Below are positions 7,819 to 12,451 of a stretch of 32,869 nt of DNA, one piece after another. Location: assembly GCA_945875545.1 (NCBI GenBank), contig CAMCKZ010000032.1:1-32869 (forward strand), in the 5' to 3' direction. Position 1 is the stretch's first letter; every line of letters starts with the position of its first letter. Both the position numbers and the translations under genes were made by a program. The DNA is from Polyangium aurulentum. GTDB lineage: Bacteria > Myxococcota_A > Polyangia > Polyangiales > Polyangiaceae. The notes beneath the pieces were generated by a model that did no database searches, was not told the origin of the DNA, and saw only the letters and a program-made list of their open reading frames with translations.

Positions 7819-7973
7819 AGCCCGCAAGATTAGCCAACTCAGCAGGAATTACCAGATACATACGCGCGATTCGCAAGCAAAAAGAACGCGGTCCCGGTGC
7901 CGCGCCGGTGCCAAAGTCCCCGGTCAAAAAACCCCGTAGTCGGCGGCACAAAGCAACGATAAGTGCTTGCGCC

Positions 7974-10619
7974 ATGCGGTTTCGCCTGCGTCATAATTTG
8001 GCTCTTGTTGCCCTGGCCGCAGGGTCGAACGCGTCTCCTGCGCTGGCCCGCGCCGACGAACCGGCACCCGCGCGCGGCGGTGCCAGTGAGTCGCTGCTGC
8101 GCCCCACCGAGCCCGTAGAAGCCGCGCCGTTGCCCCAGAAGGCCGCTGTGACGCCTCCAAGGCTGCTGTCCGACACCGGGGTTAGCTACCCCGCGGAAGC
8201 CCTCGCACAGGGCTTCTACGAGGCAACAACGGTGCTCCTCAAGGTCGACGTCGATGCGACGGGCGCGGTGACGAAAGTCGAAGTGGAAACCCCGCGCGGC
8301 CACGGCTTCGATGAGGCTGCGGTCGCCGCGGCAAAAGAGCTCAAATACGAGCCCGCGAAAAGGGGCGATCGGGCCATCGCGTCGCGTTGGCGCCACGCGT
8401 ATTCGTTTGAAGTTCCGCTGGCGCGCCTCGATGGCTTCGTGCGCACAGCATCAAGCGATCGCGGCCTCGCAAGCGTCACGGTGCGTCTCGAACGCGACGG
8501 CGAAGCTCCCGTTTTGACCGTGACCGATGGCACCGGGCACTTCGCGTTTGGCGCGCAGGCGCGAGGCCCCGTTCATCTCGTTGCAGCGGTGCCGGGTTTC
8601 GACGAGGTCGTCGTCGACGAGACGCTCATTCCGGCGCAGGAGACGAGCCTGACCATTCGCCTCGAACGCGCCCAAGCCGCCGCGCCGAAGACCGCGAAAG
8701 ACGACTCCGGCGCCGCGTTCGAAGAGATCACCGTGCGCGGGCAGAGGCCGCCGCGCGAGGTCACGAAGCGCACCCTCGAAAAGCGCGAACTCGAGCGAAT
8801 TCCCGGCACAAACGGCGACGCTCTTCGCGCCATTCAGAGCCTTCCCGGGGTCGCCCGCCCGCCAGGTTTGGCCGGTCTTCTCATCGTTCGCGGCGCCCCC
8901 CCAAACTCCACAAACGTCTTCGTCGACGGCACGCTGATCCCGCTCGTCTACCACTTCGGCGGCCTGTCGAGCGTGGTGCCCACCGAGATGATCAGCCGCA
9001 TCGATTTCTACCCCGGAAACTTCAGTGCCCGCTACGGGCGCGTGACCGGCGGCATCGTCGATGTGGGGCTTCGCGCACCTCGCGTCGACAAGCTCGCGGG
9101 CATGACCCAGGTCGATCTCATCGACGCCCGCAGCGTGGTCGAAGGCCCCATCGCCGACACGGGTTGGAGCTTCGCCCTCGGGGCAAGGCGCAGCTACGTC
9201 GACGTGTGGCTCAAGCCCGTGCTCGAGGCCGCGGGATCCGGCGTCAGCACAGCCCCCGTTTATTACGATTGGCAGGCGGTGGTCGAGCGCCCGCTTCCGC
9301 AAAAAGGCCGGCTAAACTTCGCTTTTTATGGCTCCGACGACCGCCTCGAAATTCTCATCAAATCCGTCAATGGGAGCGATCCGTCCATTGGTGGAGGCCT
9401 CGGGCTGCACACGGCATTTTGGAGATTGGCTGCAACCTACAAGCAATCTCTCGGAGAGAAAACCGACCTGTCGATGGTGCACGCCATCGGTAAGAACACC
9501 ATCGAGTTCAACCTCGGAGACAACGCGTTTCAGCTCGACGGAATGCCGCTCACAAACCGTGTAGACCTCACGCATAAAATTTCGCCGGGAACCACCCTCG
9601 ACGCGGGTCTCGATATGCTGTGGCAGCCCTACGACATCTTCGTCCGGCTTCCGCCCCAGCCTCGGCCCGGGGAGCCCGCCGATGGACCGGGCCTTTCCCG
9701 CGAGTCCCGTACCGTGCGCACCTCTGCGTCGATCTATCGCCCCGCCGCCTTCGTGGAGCTCTCATTGCAGCCCGCAACTGGAACGCGTATTGTGCCAGGC
9801 ATACGCGTTGATTACTCGCGCGATACGAAATCGTGGGACGTGAGCCCGCGCTTCAGCGCTCGCCACGAACTCGCGCGCGAGCACCCCAAGACGATCATCA
9901 AGGGCGGGGCCGGGCTCTTCACGCAACCGCCGCAACCTCAGGAAACAAGCTCGGTTTTCGGTCAGGCGGGCTTGACCTCCAATCGCTCATATGGATATTC
10001 CATAGGGGTCGAACAAGACCTTTGGCGCCCCGTCGAGATCTCGCTGGAGGGCTTCTACAAGAAGCTCGATAACCTCGTGGTGGCCCGGTACGGCAACGCG
10101 GGGGTGGGAACCGTTTACGGACTCGAAATGCTCCTGCGCTACAAGCCCGACGAGCGCTTCTTTGGGTGGCTCGCGTACACGCTGTCGCGCAGCGCGGTAC
10201 AAGACCGCCCCGGTGAGCCCGAGCGCTTGGCGCAGTTCGATCAAACGCACATTCTCACGGCCCTCGGAAGCTGGCGCCTCGGCGGCGGGTGGGAGCTCGG
10301 CGGGCGCATGCGCGTCGTCTCCGGCAGCAACACGACGCCCAGCGCTTACGGTTTTTTCGACGGCAACAGCGCGGTCAATCTTCCGGCGCAAAGTTACCCG
10401 CCGTTCGGCGAGCGGCTGCCACTTTTTCACCAATTCGATATCCGTGTAGACCGCACGTGGACCTTCGCGTCGCACAAGATCGATGTGTACCTCGACCTGC
10501 AAAATGCCTACAATTCGCCCAACTCCGAAGGCGTTTCTTACAATTACAATTACACGAAGCGCAGCTACGCGGGCGCGCTTCCCATCTTGCCGAGCATCGG
10601 TGCCCGCGTCGATTTTTAG
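7974..10619 (+). CDS. TonB-dependent outer-membrane receptor with N-terminal TonB-C and carboxypeptidase-like domains
   Basis: From the ATG at 7974 this encodes 881 residues; an in-frame start at 7908 would put 22 basic residues before the signal peptide and is rejected. Domains in order are: signal peptide (about 1-27, ending ALARA); a TonB C-terminal-like domain (about 62-149, with VSYPAEAL, GAVTKVEV and AVAAAKELKYEPA); a carboxypeptidase regulatory-like beta domain (about 152-231); a plug domain (about 262-370, with LLIVRGAPPNSTNVFVDG and NFSARYGRVTGGIVDV); and a beta-barrel to the C-terminal aromatic residue (RVDF). Receptors of this class import substrates across the outer membrane using TonB-transmitted energy. 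Carrying a TonB-C domain in the receptor itself is unusual. The ligand is unknown. Two lipoprotein genes follow in an operon. Confidence 0.93.
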   Translation: MRFRLRHNLALVALAAGSNASPALARADEPAPARGGASESLLRPTEPVEAAPLPQKAAVTPPRLLSDTGVSYPAEALAQGFYEATTVLLKVDVDATGAVTKVEVETPRGHGFDEAAVAAAKELKYEPAKRGDRAIASRWRHAYSFEVPLARLDGFVRTASSDRGLASVTVRLERDGEAPVLTVTDGTGHFAFGAQARGPVHLVAAVPGFDEVVVDETLIPAQETSLTIRLERAQAAAPKTAKDDSGAAFEEITVRGQRPPREVTKRTLEKRELERIPGTNGDALRAIQSLPGVARPPGLAGLLIVRGAPPNSTNVFVDGTLIPLVYHFGGLSSVVPTEMISRIDFYPGNFSARYGRVTGGIVDVGLRAPRVDKLAGMTQVDLIDARSVVEGPIADTGWSFALGARRSYVDVWLKPVLEAAGSGVSTAPVYYDWQAVVERPLPQKGRLNFAFYGSDDRLEILIKSVNGSDPSIGGGLGLHTAFWRLAATYKQSLGEKTDLSMVHAIGKNTIEFNLGDNAFQLDGMPLTNRVDLTHKISPGTTLDAGLDMLWQPYDIFVRLPPQPRPGEPADGPGLSRESRTVRTSASIYRPAAFVELSLQPATGTRIVPGIRVDYSRDTKSWDVSPRFSARHELAREHPKTIIKGGAGLFTQPPQPQETSSVFGQAGLTSNRSYGYSIGVEQDLWRPVEISLEGFYKKLDNLVVARYGNAGVGTVYGLEMLLRYKPDERFFGWLAYTLSRSAVQDRPGEPERLAQFDQTHILTALGSWRLGGGWELGGRMRVVSGSNTTPSAYGFFDGNSAVNLPAQSYPPFGERLPLFHQFDIRVDRTWTFASHKIDVYLDLQNAYNSPNSEGVSYNYNYTKRSYAGALPILPSIGARVDF

Positions 10620-10634
10620 CTCCAGGACCCGACC

Positions 10635-11672
10635 ATGATCCGAACACTCTTTCGCTCCGCGGTTGCCGGCGCGGCGCTGATTTTGCTCCCGTCTTGCGGC
10701 GGCGGATTCGATCCCGCGAGCAAGATTCAGAGCGTGCGCGTTCTAGGCCTTCGCGCCGATAAACCCTACGCGAAACCCGGCGATACGGTGACCCTCGAGG
10801 TCCTCGCGGTGGACCGGCGGCCGGAGGAAAAACGCCAACGGCCCATGACCGTATTTTGGCTCCCGCTCGTCTGCACCAATCCGCCAAACGACGCGTATTA
10901 CGCGTGCTTTACGCGGGCTGCGAAACTGACCTCCCCGACCGGCGAGCCCACTCCGGGTGCAGGGGCGGGCGGAGCGGATGGGGCCGCAGACATCACGGCG
11001 TTGGTGGCAAAAGGACAGAGTTTTTCCTACAAAATACCGGGCGACGCGGTCTCCAGTCATGTCAAAGTGCCCGGGGCAAACGGGGACTATGGAATATCCA
11101 TAGTGTTCTACATGGCCTGCGCGGGCCGCATCCGATTGGCCTCGCGCGACGAGGCTTCCGCGAACCCGCAGCAGGTTCCCATTCAGTGCGTCGACGACGA
11201 CGGGCAAGCTCTTGGCGCCGACGACTACGTGCTCGGATTTTGGCGCACGTTTGTTTACGATGATCGCCCAAACGCGAACCCGCTCATCGACAACGTGCTC
11301 TTGAAGACAGACGTGATTGGCCCCGGCGCCGCAGTCGCGATAACGCCCTGCGCCGACGGCAGCTCGGGGCAGTGCAAGGGTGCCGAGGTCAACGTCGTGG
11401 TTCCCGCGTCCAGTCAGGAAGACAAGCCCTACGATCCCGATGCGCCGCGCGAACGCATTTGGGTCGCGGCGTTTTCCGACGTGGCGTCGGTCGGTGGCGC
11501 GCAACAACTCCTTTACGACACGAAGGCCGGGGCCATTCGCGACAACCCCGTGAGGGTCACGGCGACAAGCGGAGACCTGGGAAAAAGCGGCACACTGTGG
11601 CTCGTCGTTCACGACAGCCGCGGAGGCGCCACGTGGACGACCGTGCCTCTTCTCGTGACCGCGGCTCCGTAA
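10635..11672 (+). CDS. Lipoprotein of unknown function, partner of the TonB-dependent receptor
   Basis: Encodes 345 residues with a lipoprotein signal: hydrophobic stretch then lipobox LPSC (18-21), so Cys21 should be lipidated. The mature part begins with a beta-rich segment (IQSVRVLGLRADKPYAKPGDTV) that resembles an Ig-like or cadherin-like strand pattern. Several cysteines (CTNPPNDAYYACF, MACAGRI, IQCVDD, TPCADGSSGQC) could form disulfides in the periplasm or at the cell surface. It starts 15 bp after the receptor stop and overlaps the next gene (TAATG). By analogy with SusC/SusD pairs, a receptor-associated lipoprotein could help capture substrate, but no SusD similarity is visible. Function unassigned. 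Confidence 0.85.
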   Translation: MIRTLFRSAVAGAALILLPSCGGGFDPASKIQSVRVLGLRADKPYAKPGDTVTLEVLAVDRRPEEKRQRPMTVFWLPLVCTNPPNDAYYACFTRAAKLTSPTGEPTPGAGAGGADGAADITALVAKGQSFSYKIPGDAVSSHVKVPGANGDYGISIVFYMACAGRIRLASRDEASANPQQVPIQCVDDDGQALGADDYVLGFWRTFVYDDRPNANPLIDNVLLKTDVIGPGAAVAITPCADGSSGQCKGAEVNVVVPASSQEDKPYDPDAPRERIWVAAFSDVASVGGAQQLLYDTKAGAIRDNPVRVTATSGDLGKSGTLWLVVHDSRGGATWTTVPLLVTAAP

Positions 11673-12451
11673 TGGGTCGGGGCCTTTCGCCCGTTTGGCA
11701 CCCTCGGTTCCGGGCGCGCGTGGTTGCCGCCTGCATCGCGGTTTGCATCGGTGCGGCACCGGCTTTCGCCCTTGCCGCATGCGACGCAGCACCGATGGAA
11801 GGACGCGCACTGCACCCCCTTGATAAGTCCGATGTGGGCGAACCCTTCGACGCGAATTTTCTTTTGGCCGACGCGGACTTCGAAGACGCCGCGTTTCTCC
11901 CGGGCGACAGCGTGCAGGCATTTTTCGAAAAGCCGCCCTATGGCGCGCCGTCGTTCCTCGCGAGTTACGTGGAGAAGGGTCGCCGCGCCGCCGACCTCGT
12001 GGCCGACGCTTCCTTGCGTCATCGGGTGAGCGGCTTGTGGCTCCTCGCGCGCCTGCAACGGGATGGCGCATTGATCGCGGCGCGGCGCTATCCTTCCGAG
12101 GCAAAAGACACGGAATTCGTCTTCTCGTATGGATGTTCCGGACGCCTATTGTGCGACGCGCACTTCGGGGGACTTTCGGTCCAGCTCGATGCTTTGGCGG
12201 GGGACATGAGGCGCTCCTTCGCGGACGTGCGCGGGGCGGGAGTTTCAGTCAATGGCTTCGCGGTGGGCGAGAGAACTGCCACCCTCGACAACGTGTTTGT
12301 GACGTCTGCGAACCTGGCCACCGCGGCGCTCTACGCGCTGGAGCCCGTGGTGCACGGGAACAACGGAGGCCAAGAGCAGACGTGGCGCATCTACAGGCTT
12401 TACGCCGCGCATACGGGGTATAGTCCGATGGGACGTGAACCCGCGCCGTAA
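11672..12451 (+). CDS. Lipoprotein resembling a lysozyme-like (LQKE-motif) surface domain
   Basis: Encodes 259 residues; the ATG shares a base with the preceding stop (TAATG), implying coupled translation. A signal peptide ends in the lipobox LAAC (34-37). The mature domain follows a pattern I know from secreted actinobacterial and candidate-phylum proteins: a phrase like FL.sY...g..AA.li..As, then a helix ending in LQKE, then FSYGC...CD..f.G, and finally NVFV.s.aTAALY..eP. All blocks are present here in order (SFLASYVEKGRRAADLV, LWLLARLQRDGALI, FVFSYGCSGRLLCDAHFGG, NVFVTSANLATAALYALEP). The usual Glu of LQKE is Asp here. If the family is a peptidoglycan hydrolase, this member may be altered or inactive. 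Family recall is from memory and unverified. Confidence 0.75.
   Translation: MGRGLSPVWHPRFRARVVAACIAVCIGAAPAFALAACDAAPMEGRALHPLDKSDVGEPFDANFLLADADFEDAAFLPGDSVQAFFEKPPYGAPSFLASYVEKGRRAADLVADASLRHRVSGLWLLARLQRDGALIAARRYPSEAKDTEFVFSYGCSGRLLCDAHFGGLSVQLDALAGDMRRSFADVRGAGVSVNGFAVGERTATLDNVFVTSANLATAALYALEPVVHGNNGGQEQTWRIYRLYAAHTGYSPMGREPAP

What the first reader, a model, noticed from the sequence alone, without database searches (positions are those of the whole stretch)
7974..10619. TonB-dependent receptor carrying its own TonB-C-like domain
Between signal peptide and plug lies a domain with TonB C-terminal features (VSYPAEAL..., AVAAAKELKYEPA) and then a carboxypeptidase-regulatory domain. TonB-C normally belongs to the inner-membrane energiser, not the receptor. 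A receptor-borne copy could mimic, gate or replace the TonB contact, or signal to partners.
Basis: partly seen in the sequence, partly recalled or inferred. Interest (0 to 1): 0.55.

Follow-up and report, generated by a model that had tools for sequence, protein, structure and literature searches.

The report
Outer-membrane receptor carrying TonB's own domain
This bacterium's outer-membrane import protein carries, on its inner face, a copy of the domain that normally belongs to TonB, the separate protein that powers such importers; the layout recurs across its phylum and may be a built-in gate or docking site for the power connection.

Summary
Confirmed. The 881-aa protein (7974-10619, +) reads: signal peptide, genuine TonB_C domain (Pfam 2e-9, 38.2 bits, cut-off 24.6), SusC/Oar-type CarboxypepD_reg extension, TonB box (EEITVRG), plug, barrel. 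The predicted fold matches TonB's C-terminal domain (rmsd 1.9); no STN profile match. It is not a quirk: 78 of 78 scanned homologues have it; in 30 relatives 73 of 150 listed TonB_C places lie in receptor-sized frames; 16 of 16 sampled long frames across Myxococcota repeat it, as does an MxcH-type siderophore receptor. 'Replaces TonB' is disfavoured: no membrane anchor, a TonB box kept in 89 of 101, separate TonB/ExbB/ExbD genes. The receptor-borne domain differs from true TonB domains: acidic instead of basic, with the box-binding strand beta3 far more conserved. Favoured, unproven: it caps the receptor's own TonB box until TonB displaces it, as FpvA's signalling domain does; rival: it docks TonB. 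The AlphaFold model did not show the cap and a covariation test was negative. Also new: an Ig-like lipoprotein gene directly follows the receptor in 79 of 80 named loci. My searches listed no paper describing the layout.

The parts
7974..8048 (+). signal peptide, aa 1-25 (MRFRLRHNLALVALAAGSNASPALA)
   Evidence: sequence; 78 of 80 receptor frames in the named loci have a hydrophobic stretch followed by an AxA-like site (crude rule, not SignalP)
8157..8411 (+). TonB_C domain, aa 62-146 (Pfam core aa 71-140 = 8184-8393)
   Evidence: Pfam PF03544 2e-9, TIGR01352 6.9e-10, PDB TonB by profile, AlphaFold2 model plus Foldseek
8382..8408 (+). beta3 strand of the TonB_C domain, aa 137-145; in true TonB this strand pairs with the TonB box
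   Evidence: model secondary structure; strongest excess conservation over true TonB domains
8427..8666 (+). CarboxypepD_reg / SusC- and Oar-type N-terminal extension (NTE), aa 152-231
   Evidence: Pfam PF13620 4.8e-8; structural match to SusC NTE 9hfj Z 11.2, rmsd 2.3, 80 aligned, and 5aq0 Z 13.1, rmsd 1.3, 81 aligned
8721..8741 (+). TonB box, aa 250-256 EEITVRG
   Evidence: position and pattern, conserved in homologues; compare DEVVVTG of SusC Bt1763 (PMC7782687, passages)
8745..8774 (+). very conserved junction RPPREVTKRT, aa 258-267
8778..9050 (+). plug domain, aa 269-359
   Evidence: Pfam PF07715 3.3e-9
9081..10616 (+). beta-barrel part, about aa 370-881
   Evidence: no PF00593 match for the window protein itself up to E 1; full-length homologue L251 matches PF00593 at 1.6e-26
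10635..11672 (+). partner lipoprotein gene, 345 aa, lipobox LLPSC, conserved cysteines, Ig-like predicted fold
   Evidence: homologue directly downstream in 79 of 80 named loci; all 20 matching loci in the 13 matching genomes of 20 searched lie behind a receptor of the family; model pLDDT 88.6, pTM 0.85, Foldseek

Best explanation
A TonB-dependent outer-membrane transporter of a Myxococcota-wide class with an uncatalogued N-terminal layout: signal peptide - TonB_C - (NTE or proline-rich linker) - TonB box - plug - barrel, paired here with an Ig-like lipoprotein. Shown: the domain is a TonB C-terminal domain by sequence and predicted fold; it has no inner-membrane anchor; the TonB box is kept; real TonBs exist in the same genome; and its beta3 strand (the strand by which TonB grips a TonB box) is more conserved than in true TonBs. 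Inferred: in the resting receptor the receptor's own TonB_C holds its own TonB box by strand addition, as the signalling domain of FpvA does; substrate binding, relayed through the plug, loosens that grip and the motor-linked TonB takes the box and pulls. The domain would then be a built-in gate that stops idle receptors from occupying scarce TonB.
For: TonB_C identity. Spread: 73 of 150 listed TonB_C places in 30 relatives lie in frames of 740 aa or more; 37 of 150 listed places over 112 genomes of the phylum, in 34 genomes (both lists are cut, so lower bounds); 16 of 16 sampled long frames show TonB_C, 10 of 10 scanned have TonB_C and CarboxypepD_reg above cut-off, 9 of 10 Plug above cut-off. 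At least two more receptor families carry it without the NTE: L160/L162/L163/L167/L177 and the MxcH-type receptor L199 (1098.6 bits against cut-off 925; TonB_C 1.9e-16, Plug 2.5e-16). TonB box kept: 89 of 101. beta3: TonB-minus-receptor entropy 1.23 bits, against 0.11-0.69 for the other four elements; position 138 basic in 95 of 105 receptor domains and 7 of 27 TonBs; position 141 aromatic in 101 of 105 against 7 of 24. Precedent: in FpvA the signalling domain's sheet holds the TonB box until TonB displaces it (PMC9249621, passages).
Against: The AlphaFold2 model (single chain, aa 52-268) leaves the TonB box disordered (pLDDT under 50 for model residues 200-205 = aa 251-256) and forms no strand there. 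Presence of a clean box does not go with the basic/aromatic beta3 pair 142-143 (61/28/6/6, Fisher p 0.21; 4-5 independent pairs on the tree, uninformative). The domain is acidic overall, and so is the start of the box. 12 of 101 TonB_C receptors have no clean box by my rule. The beta3 comparison sets 105 receptor domains against 30 diverse TonBs with ragged ends (only 19 reach position 143), so part of the excess may be sampling. The Oar NTE is dispensable for secretion and most of FoxA's signalling domain for TonB binding (PMC6434023, PMC6699858, passages), so N-terminal domains need not gate.
Confidence: 0.4

Rival explanations
1. [quoted passage not shown]
For: Charge: receptor-borne domains mean -1.49 (n=105), true TonB domains mean +3.07 (n=30), Mann-Whitney p 3.5e-10. 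In 8 of 8 loci with a tonB beside a TonB_C receptor the receptor domain is acidic (-1 to -6) and the TonB domain is neutral or basic (0 to +9). A TonB homologue does form C-terminal homodimers with a salt bridge for which a receptor competes (FusB, PMC13253070, abstract).
Against: Related sequences, so the p value overstates independence; the 30-row TonB set holds at least one receptor fragment cut by a locus end (L154), which works against the contrast. The MxcH-type domain L199 looks basic by eye; the NTE next to the domain is more acidic still (-4.56), so acidity may only mean 'part of a receptor'. No complex was modelled.
Confidence: 0.25
2. Structural or assembly part: TonB_C is an inert periplasmic bead that helps folding, export or peptidoglycan contact, like the still unexplained NTE.
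For: NTE deletion in SusC Bt1763 abolishes growth for reasons perhaps unrelated to transport (PMC7782687, passages); 6 of 20 fetched paralogues show no TonB_C domain and look otherwise intact (L139, L143, L146-L149).
Against: Three receptor families carry the same domain just before the TonB box; its TonB hallmarks are near invariant (Y72, P73, G97, D113, P127, A128, F145) and beta3 is the most differentially conserved part.
Confidence: 0.22
3. Signal transducer: TonB_C stands in for STN and talks to an anti-sigma or other inner-membrane regulator.
For: Same place in the protein as STN in FecA/FoxA-type transducers.
Against: No FecR match in this genome (the control rang in 4 of 14 genomes); the four neighbouring proteins scanned in the window are no sigma or anti-sigma factors by Pfam.
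Confidence: 0.08
4. Replacement: the receptor powers itself, its TonB_C taking the place of TonB.
For: A TonB domain is physically present on the receptor.
Against: No inner-membrane anchor, no SxHxLxS motif in any receptor scanned and a cleavable-looking signal peptide; separate TonB-ExbB-ExbD sets in the genome and tonB beside TonB_C receptors in eight relatives.
Confidence: 0.03

Closest known systems
SusC-type transporters of Bacteroidota (NTE + TonB box + plug + barrel, partner lipoprotein SusD)
   Same: CarboxypepD_reg NTE before the TonB box; NTE fold matches 9hfj; a lipoprotein gene is the constant neighbour
   Different: TonB_C sits in front of the NTE; the lipoprotein is predicted as Ig-like beta domains with conserved cysteines and shows no SusD in the 50 listed hits
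Oar of Myxococcus xanthus (TBDT for PopC secretion)
   Same: myxobacterial TBDT with a PF13620 NTE and TonB box
   Different: no TonB_C is described in Oar; the same paper's survey of 34,893 TBDTs lists five N-terminal layouts built from CarboxypepD_reg, STN and AMIN, none with TonB_C (PMC6434023, passages and section 15)
MxcH, myxochelin receptor (NCBIfam NF038079)
   Same: profile positions 1-234 match aa 61-362; an over-cut-off member (L199) carries TonB_C then TonB box then plug
   Different: window protein scores 78.9 bits against a cut-off of 925; the MxcH-type member has no NTE match
STN-bearing transducers (FpvA, FecA, FoxA)
   Same: extra small periplasmic domain N-terminal to the TonB box; FpvA's holds the box
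   Different: domain is TonB_C, no STN profile match; no FecR in the genome
TonB energy transducers
   Same: C-terminal domain family PF03544
   Different: no anchor, no SHLS motif, domain at the N-terminus of a receptor; acidic, with conserved beta3

Membership tests
TonB-dependent outer-membrane receptor | plug domain PF07715 | tested here: met
   3.3e-9, 37.6 bits, cut-off 23.9
TonB-dependent outer-membrane receptor | beta-barrel PF00593 | tested here: inconclusive
   no match for the window protein up to E 1; full-length homologue L251 (44% identical over aa 42-881) matches at 1.6e-26; 8 of 10 homologues scanned match
TonB-dependent outer-membrane receptor | TonB box before the plug | tested here: met
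   EEITVRG aa 250-256; pattern in 89 of 101 TonB_C receptors; function untested
TonB C-terminal domain (PF03544) | profile match above curated cut-off | tested here: met
   (38.2 against 24.6 bits), 78 of 78 at E 0.001
TonB C-terminal domain (PF03544) | fold of solved TonB domains | tested here: met
   predicted model; Foldseek 6i97_D E 3.7e-4, target TM 0.77, rmsd 1.9, 88 columns, 20% identity
TonB energy transducer | N-terminal membrane anchor with SxHxLxS motif | tested here: not met
   signal peptide ending ALA; motif in 0 TonB_C receptors scanned
TonB energy transducer | TonB_C at the C-terminus | tested here: not met
   TonB_C lies before the plug in 141 of 141 frames with both
STN transducer | STN domain PF07660 | tested here: not met
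   no STN (E up to 1) or among the families; own-genome STN search rings only at C53
STN transducer | FecR-type anti-sigma partner | tested here: not met
   0 matches in the genome (97.5% complete)
SusC | NTE of CarboxypepD_reg type before the TonB box | tested here: met
SusC | SusD-type partner lipoprotein | tested here: inconclusive
   a lipoprotein partner exists; no Pfam match, model Ig-like, no SusD in the 50 listed hits
MxcH (NF038079) | score over curated cut-off 925 | tested here: not met
   78.9 bits

The most novel reading that the evidence does not exclude
Myxococcota evolved, in three receptor families, a self-gated TonB-dependent transporter: the receptor's own TonB-type domain grips its own TonB box and must be displaced by the motor's TonB, so that contact with the motor is competitive and substrate-controlled. 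TonB_C would then be a general strand-gripping module and not a mark of the energiser, and annotation that counts TonB_C domains as TonBs would be wrong for a large share of this phylum's hits.
Probability: 0.35. Interest if true: 0.78.

Novelty: new variant of a known kind. Interest (0 to 1): 0.57.

Why it matters
How an idle receptor is kept off the few TonB molecules of a cell is an open question in TonB-dependent transport (my own judgement of the field). A receptor with both halves of the TonB-TonB box contact on one chain makes it directly testable with one domain and one peptide. It also corrects annotation: many TonB_C hits in Myxococcota are receptors, not energisers, and the published list of five TBDT N-terminal layouts would need a sixth. 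The constant Ig-like lipoprotein neighbour offers a new partner family to study.

Tried and rejected
Tried without support: (a) cis contact in the AlphaFold2 model, box left disordered. (b) Covariation of TonB box and beta3, Fisher p 0.21, tree pairs uninformative. (c) Linker trade-off: the lengths before and after the NTE are strongly anticorrelated (r -0.885, sum 30.5, s.d. 3.6), but on a tree it is one change for the first and three for the second, one independent pair, so it carries no weight. (d) Recent copying from a neighbouring tonB: on a 92-column tree the receptor domains do not pair with the TonBs beside them; few columns, low support. (e) Plasmid records: no place covers 80% of the TonB_C-NTE-plug query; the best hits are NTE-plug receptors, mostly of Bacteroidota, and one TonB. 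(f) VIA-align of the N-terminal model: list filled by the NTE, so it says nothing on the TonB_C part or on STN. STN was not seen in the 50 listed Foldseek rows; absence there excludes nothing.

The first lipoprotein profile was built on untrimmed frames, gave spurious hits and was discarded; the trimmed one is what I cite. One search was a failed script, repeated.

Literature: ten searches of the open-licence library; none listed a paper that I recognised, from titles and abstract starts, as describing TonB_C on a receptor; I looked for it inside nine papers by term only. Subscription papers, including the original MxcH reports, are not held. That TonB domains in general dimerise in crystals is recalled, apart from FusB.
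Full report
OBSERVATION. Window 7974-10619 (+) encodes an 881-aa protein (an upstream GTG at 7908 would lengthen it). Pfam gives TonB_C at aa 71-140 (2e-9, 38.2 bits, cut-off 24.6), CarboxypepD_reg at 152-231 (4.8e-8) and Plug at 269-359 (3.3e-9). NCBIfam adds TIGR01352 tonB_Cterm (6.9e-10) and a partial match to the myxochelin receptor model MxcH, positions 1-234 on aa 61-362 (78.9 bits, cut-off 925).

FOLD. AlphaFold2 on aa 52-268 with 78 sequences: mean pLDDT 90.5; the TonB_C part shows helix 23-27, strands 34-42 and 47-53, helix 61-69, strand 86-94 (model numbering; add 51). Foldseek finds TonB C-terminal domains: 6i97_D (TonB bound to FoxA, E 3.7e-4, target TM 0.77, rmsd 1.9), 9dc4_T, 8rd6. 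A profile of the same alignment finds TonB2 2k9k (9.8e-8), 6fip, 6i97_D, 1u07 and others by sequence. The NTE part matches carboxypeptidase D 5aq0 (Z 13.1, rmsd 1.3, 81 aligned) and the NTE of SusC 9hfj (Z 11.2, rmsd 2.3, 80 aligned). No STN profile match.

ANATOMY. Before the plug lies EEITVRG (aa 250-256), followed by the nearly invariant RPPREVTKRT. It fits the TonB box of SusC Bt1763, DEVVVTG, which likewise follows the NTE (PMC7782687, passages). By a simple pattern 89 of 101 TonB_C receptors keep such a box. The N-terminus is a signal peptide ending ALA; 78 of 80 receptor frames in named loci have an AxA-like site behind a hydrophobic stretch, and no receptor has the SxHxLxS motor motif (crude rules). 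So the receptor domain is a free periplasmic domain, not an anchored TonB.

HOW COMMON. In this genome (3.5 Mb, 97.5% complete) four places match TonB_C: this receptor and three TonB-like genes. Eight places match Plug; only this one carries TonB_C, one being cut off at a contig end. All 59 genomes searched with the whole protein match. One scan of named genomes returned 80 loci, the best of 343 relatives, nearly all labelled as Myxococcota or their older names (Polyangiaceae, Labilithrix, Sorangium, Minicystis, Polyangium, Myxococcales, Deltaproteobacteria; one carries the label Proteobacteria). Of the N-terminal parts, 78 of 78 match TonB_C and CarboxypepD_reg (three cut by contig ends were dropped, and the set is biased to close kin). 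To look for losses I fetched 20 paralogues that had aligned only from the middle: 12 of 20 still have the domain by a receptor-type profile, 2 more have it in another frame (L130, L132), 6 lack it. In 30 relatives 73 of 150 listed TonB_C places lie in frames of 740 aa or more. Over 112 genomes drawn from the phylum 37 of 150 listed places do, in 34 genomes. Both lists are cut off. I fetched 16 of the long frames: 16 of 16 show TonB_C, and of 10 scanned all have TonB_C and CarboxypepD_reg over cut-off and 9 have Plug over cut-off, the tenth just below.

OTHER RECEPTOR FAMILIES. A second family (L160, L162, L163, L167, L177) and the MxcH type (L199, 1098.6 bits over the 925 cut-off) carry TonB_C, then a proline-rich or short linker, then the box, with no NTE. 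Two MxcH relatives (L200, L201) show no TonB_C. So the unit 'TonB_C in front of the TonB box' recurs in three receptor families, with gains or losses.

IT IS NOT THE ENERGISER. The genome has a TonB-ExbB-ExbD set on C132 next to another receptor, and an ExbB-ExbD-TonB set on C78 (the Exb names are mine, from the sequences, not from a profile search). In eight other genomes a tonB lies beside a TonB_C receptor (L179-L185, L193): in five the two TonB_C stretches are 117-243 nt apart, in three about 1.3 kb. On a small tree these TonBs do not pair with their neighbours' receptor domains (few columns).

WHAT DISTINGUISHES IT. Receptor-borne domains (n=105 after thinning) against true TonB C-termini (n=30): net charge -1.49 against +3.07, Mann-Whitney p 3.5e-10; in the eight pairs the receptor domain is -1 to -6 and the TonB 0 to +9. 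The tryptophan of TonB alpha2 is mostly gone (W at 123: 3 of 105 against 15 of 30). The strand beta3 is far more constant in receptors: TonB-minus-receptor entropy 1.23 bits, against 0.11, 0.66, 0.37 and 0.69 for alpha1, beta1, beta2 and alpha2; 138 is basic in 95 of 105 against 7 of 27, 141 aromatic in 101 of 105 against 7 of 24. In true TonB, beta3 is the strand to which the TonB box is added (PMC11658791, passages). A TonB must fit many receptors; a receptor-borne copy that served one private partner would look like this. Limits: related sequences, ragged TonB ends, 30 TonBs of which at least one row is a receptor fragment.

MECHANISM. I favour a gate: the receptor's own TonB_C holds its own TonB box; substrate binding releases it; TonB takes over. 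FpvA gives the precedent with another domain: its signalling domain binds the TonB box without ligand and TonB displaces it (PMC9249621, passages). Against it: the model did not show the contact, box and beta3 did not covary, and the domain is acidic overall, like the start of the box. The rival, a dock for TonB, uses the charge contrast and the known pairing of a TonB-type domain (FusB, PMC13253070, abstract). FecR signalling is unlikely here. I put the gate at 0.40, the dock at 0.25, an inert or assembly part at 0.22.

THE PARTNER. Right behind the receptor (15 nt) is a 345-aa lipoprotein gene. A homologue lies directly downstream in 79 of 80 named loci (three of them cut by contig ends) and in 17 of 20 paralogue loci, including 5 of the 6 that lack TonB_C. 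In 20 genomes searched it was found in 13, at 20 loci, every one on the same strand within about 230 nt behind a receptor listed (distances read off the two tables by eye). So it belongs to the receptor family and not to the TonB_C domain. It has a lipobox, conserved cysteines and a confident Ig-like model (pLDDT 88.6, pTM 0.85) without a close match in the PDB (target TM 0.34 at best in the list); no Pfam match. This recalls SusC-SusD in arrangement, with a different lipoprotein.

NOVELTY. A survey of 34,893 TBDTs lists five N-terminal layouts from CarboxypepD_reg, STN and AMIN (PMC6434023, section 15); it required PF00593, which the window protein does not reach. A 2025 study of TonB/TolA evolution used PF03544 as a TonB marker (PMC12204202, passages). 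My ten searches listed no paper that I recognised as describing TonB_C on a receptor; subscription papers are not covered, and the layout is visible to anyone in domain databases. I file it as a new variant of a known kind.

Noticed in passing
window 10635-11672: Ig-like, cysteine-rich lipoprotein family found only directly behind receptors of this family in the genomes searched; no Pfam name.
   Followed up: yes
window 11672-12451: Third gene in the row, secreted-looking 259-aa protein, no Pfam or NCBIfam family; homologues follow the lipoprotein in a minority of loci.
   Followed up: partly
L199 (G137 C2): MxcH-type myxochelin receptor carries an N-terminal TonB_C, and the first ~100 positions of the curated NCBIfam model NF038079 match such domains in other receptors.
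   Followed up: partly
L179-L183: tonB and TonB_C-receptor genes abut; the receptors' boxes there look classic (EVVVTA, EIVVVA).
   Followed up: partly
L013 (G000 C132): TonB-ExbB-ExbD and a 992-aa receptor in one 7.6 kb contig of the same genome.
   Followed up: no
A3, aa 145-154 and 229-251: Flexible linker lies either after or before the NTE with nearly constant total length; one event on the tree.
   Followed up: yes
L249, L243, L250, L248: Receptors in which TonB_C is followed by two tandem CarboxypepD_reg-like domains (two stretches by Pfam in L249 and L243; by eye in L250 and L248).
   Followed up: no
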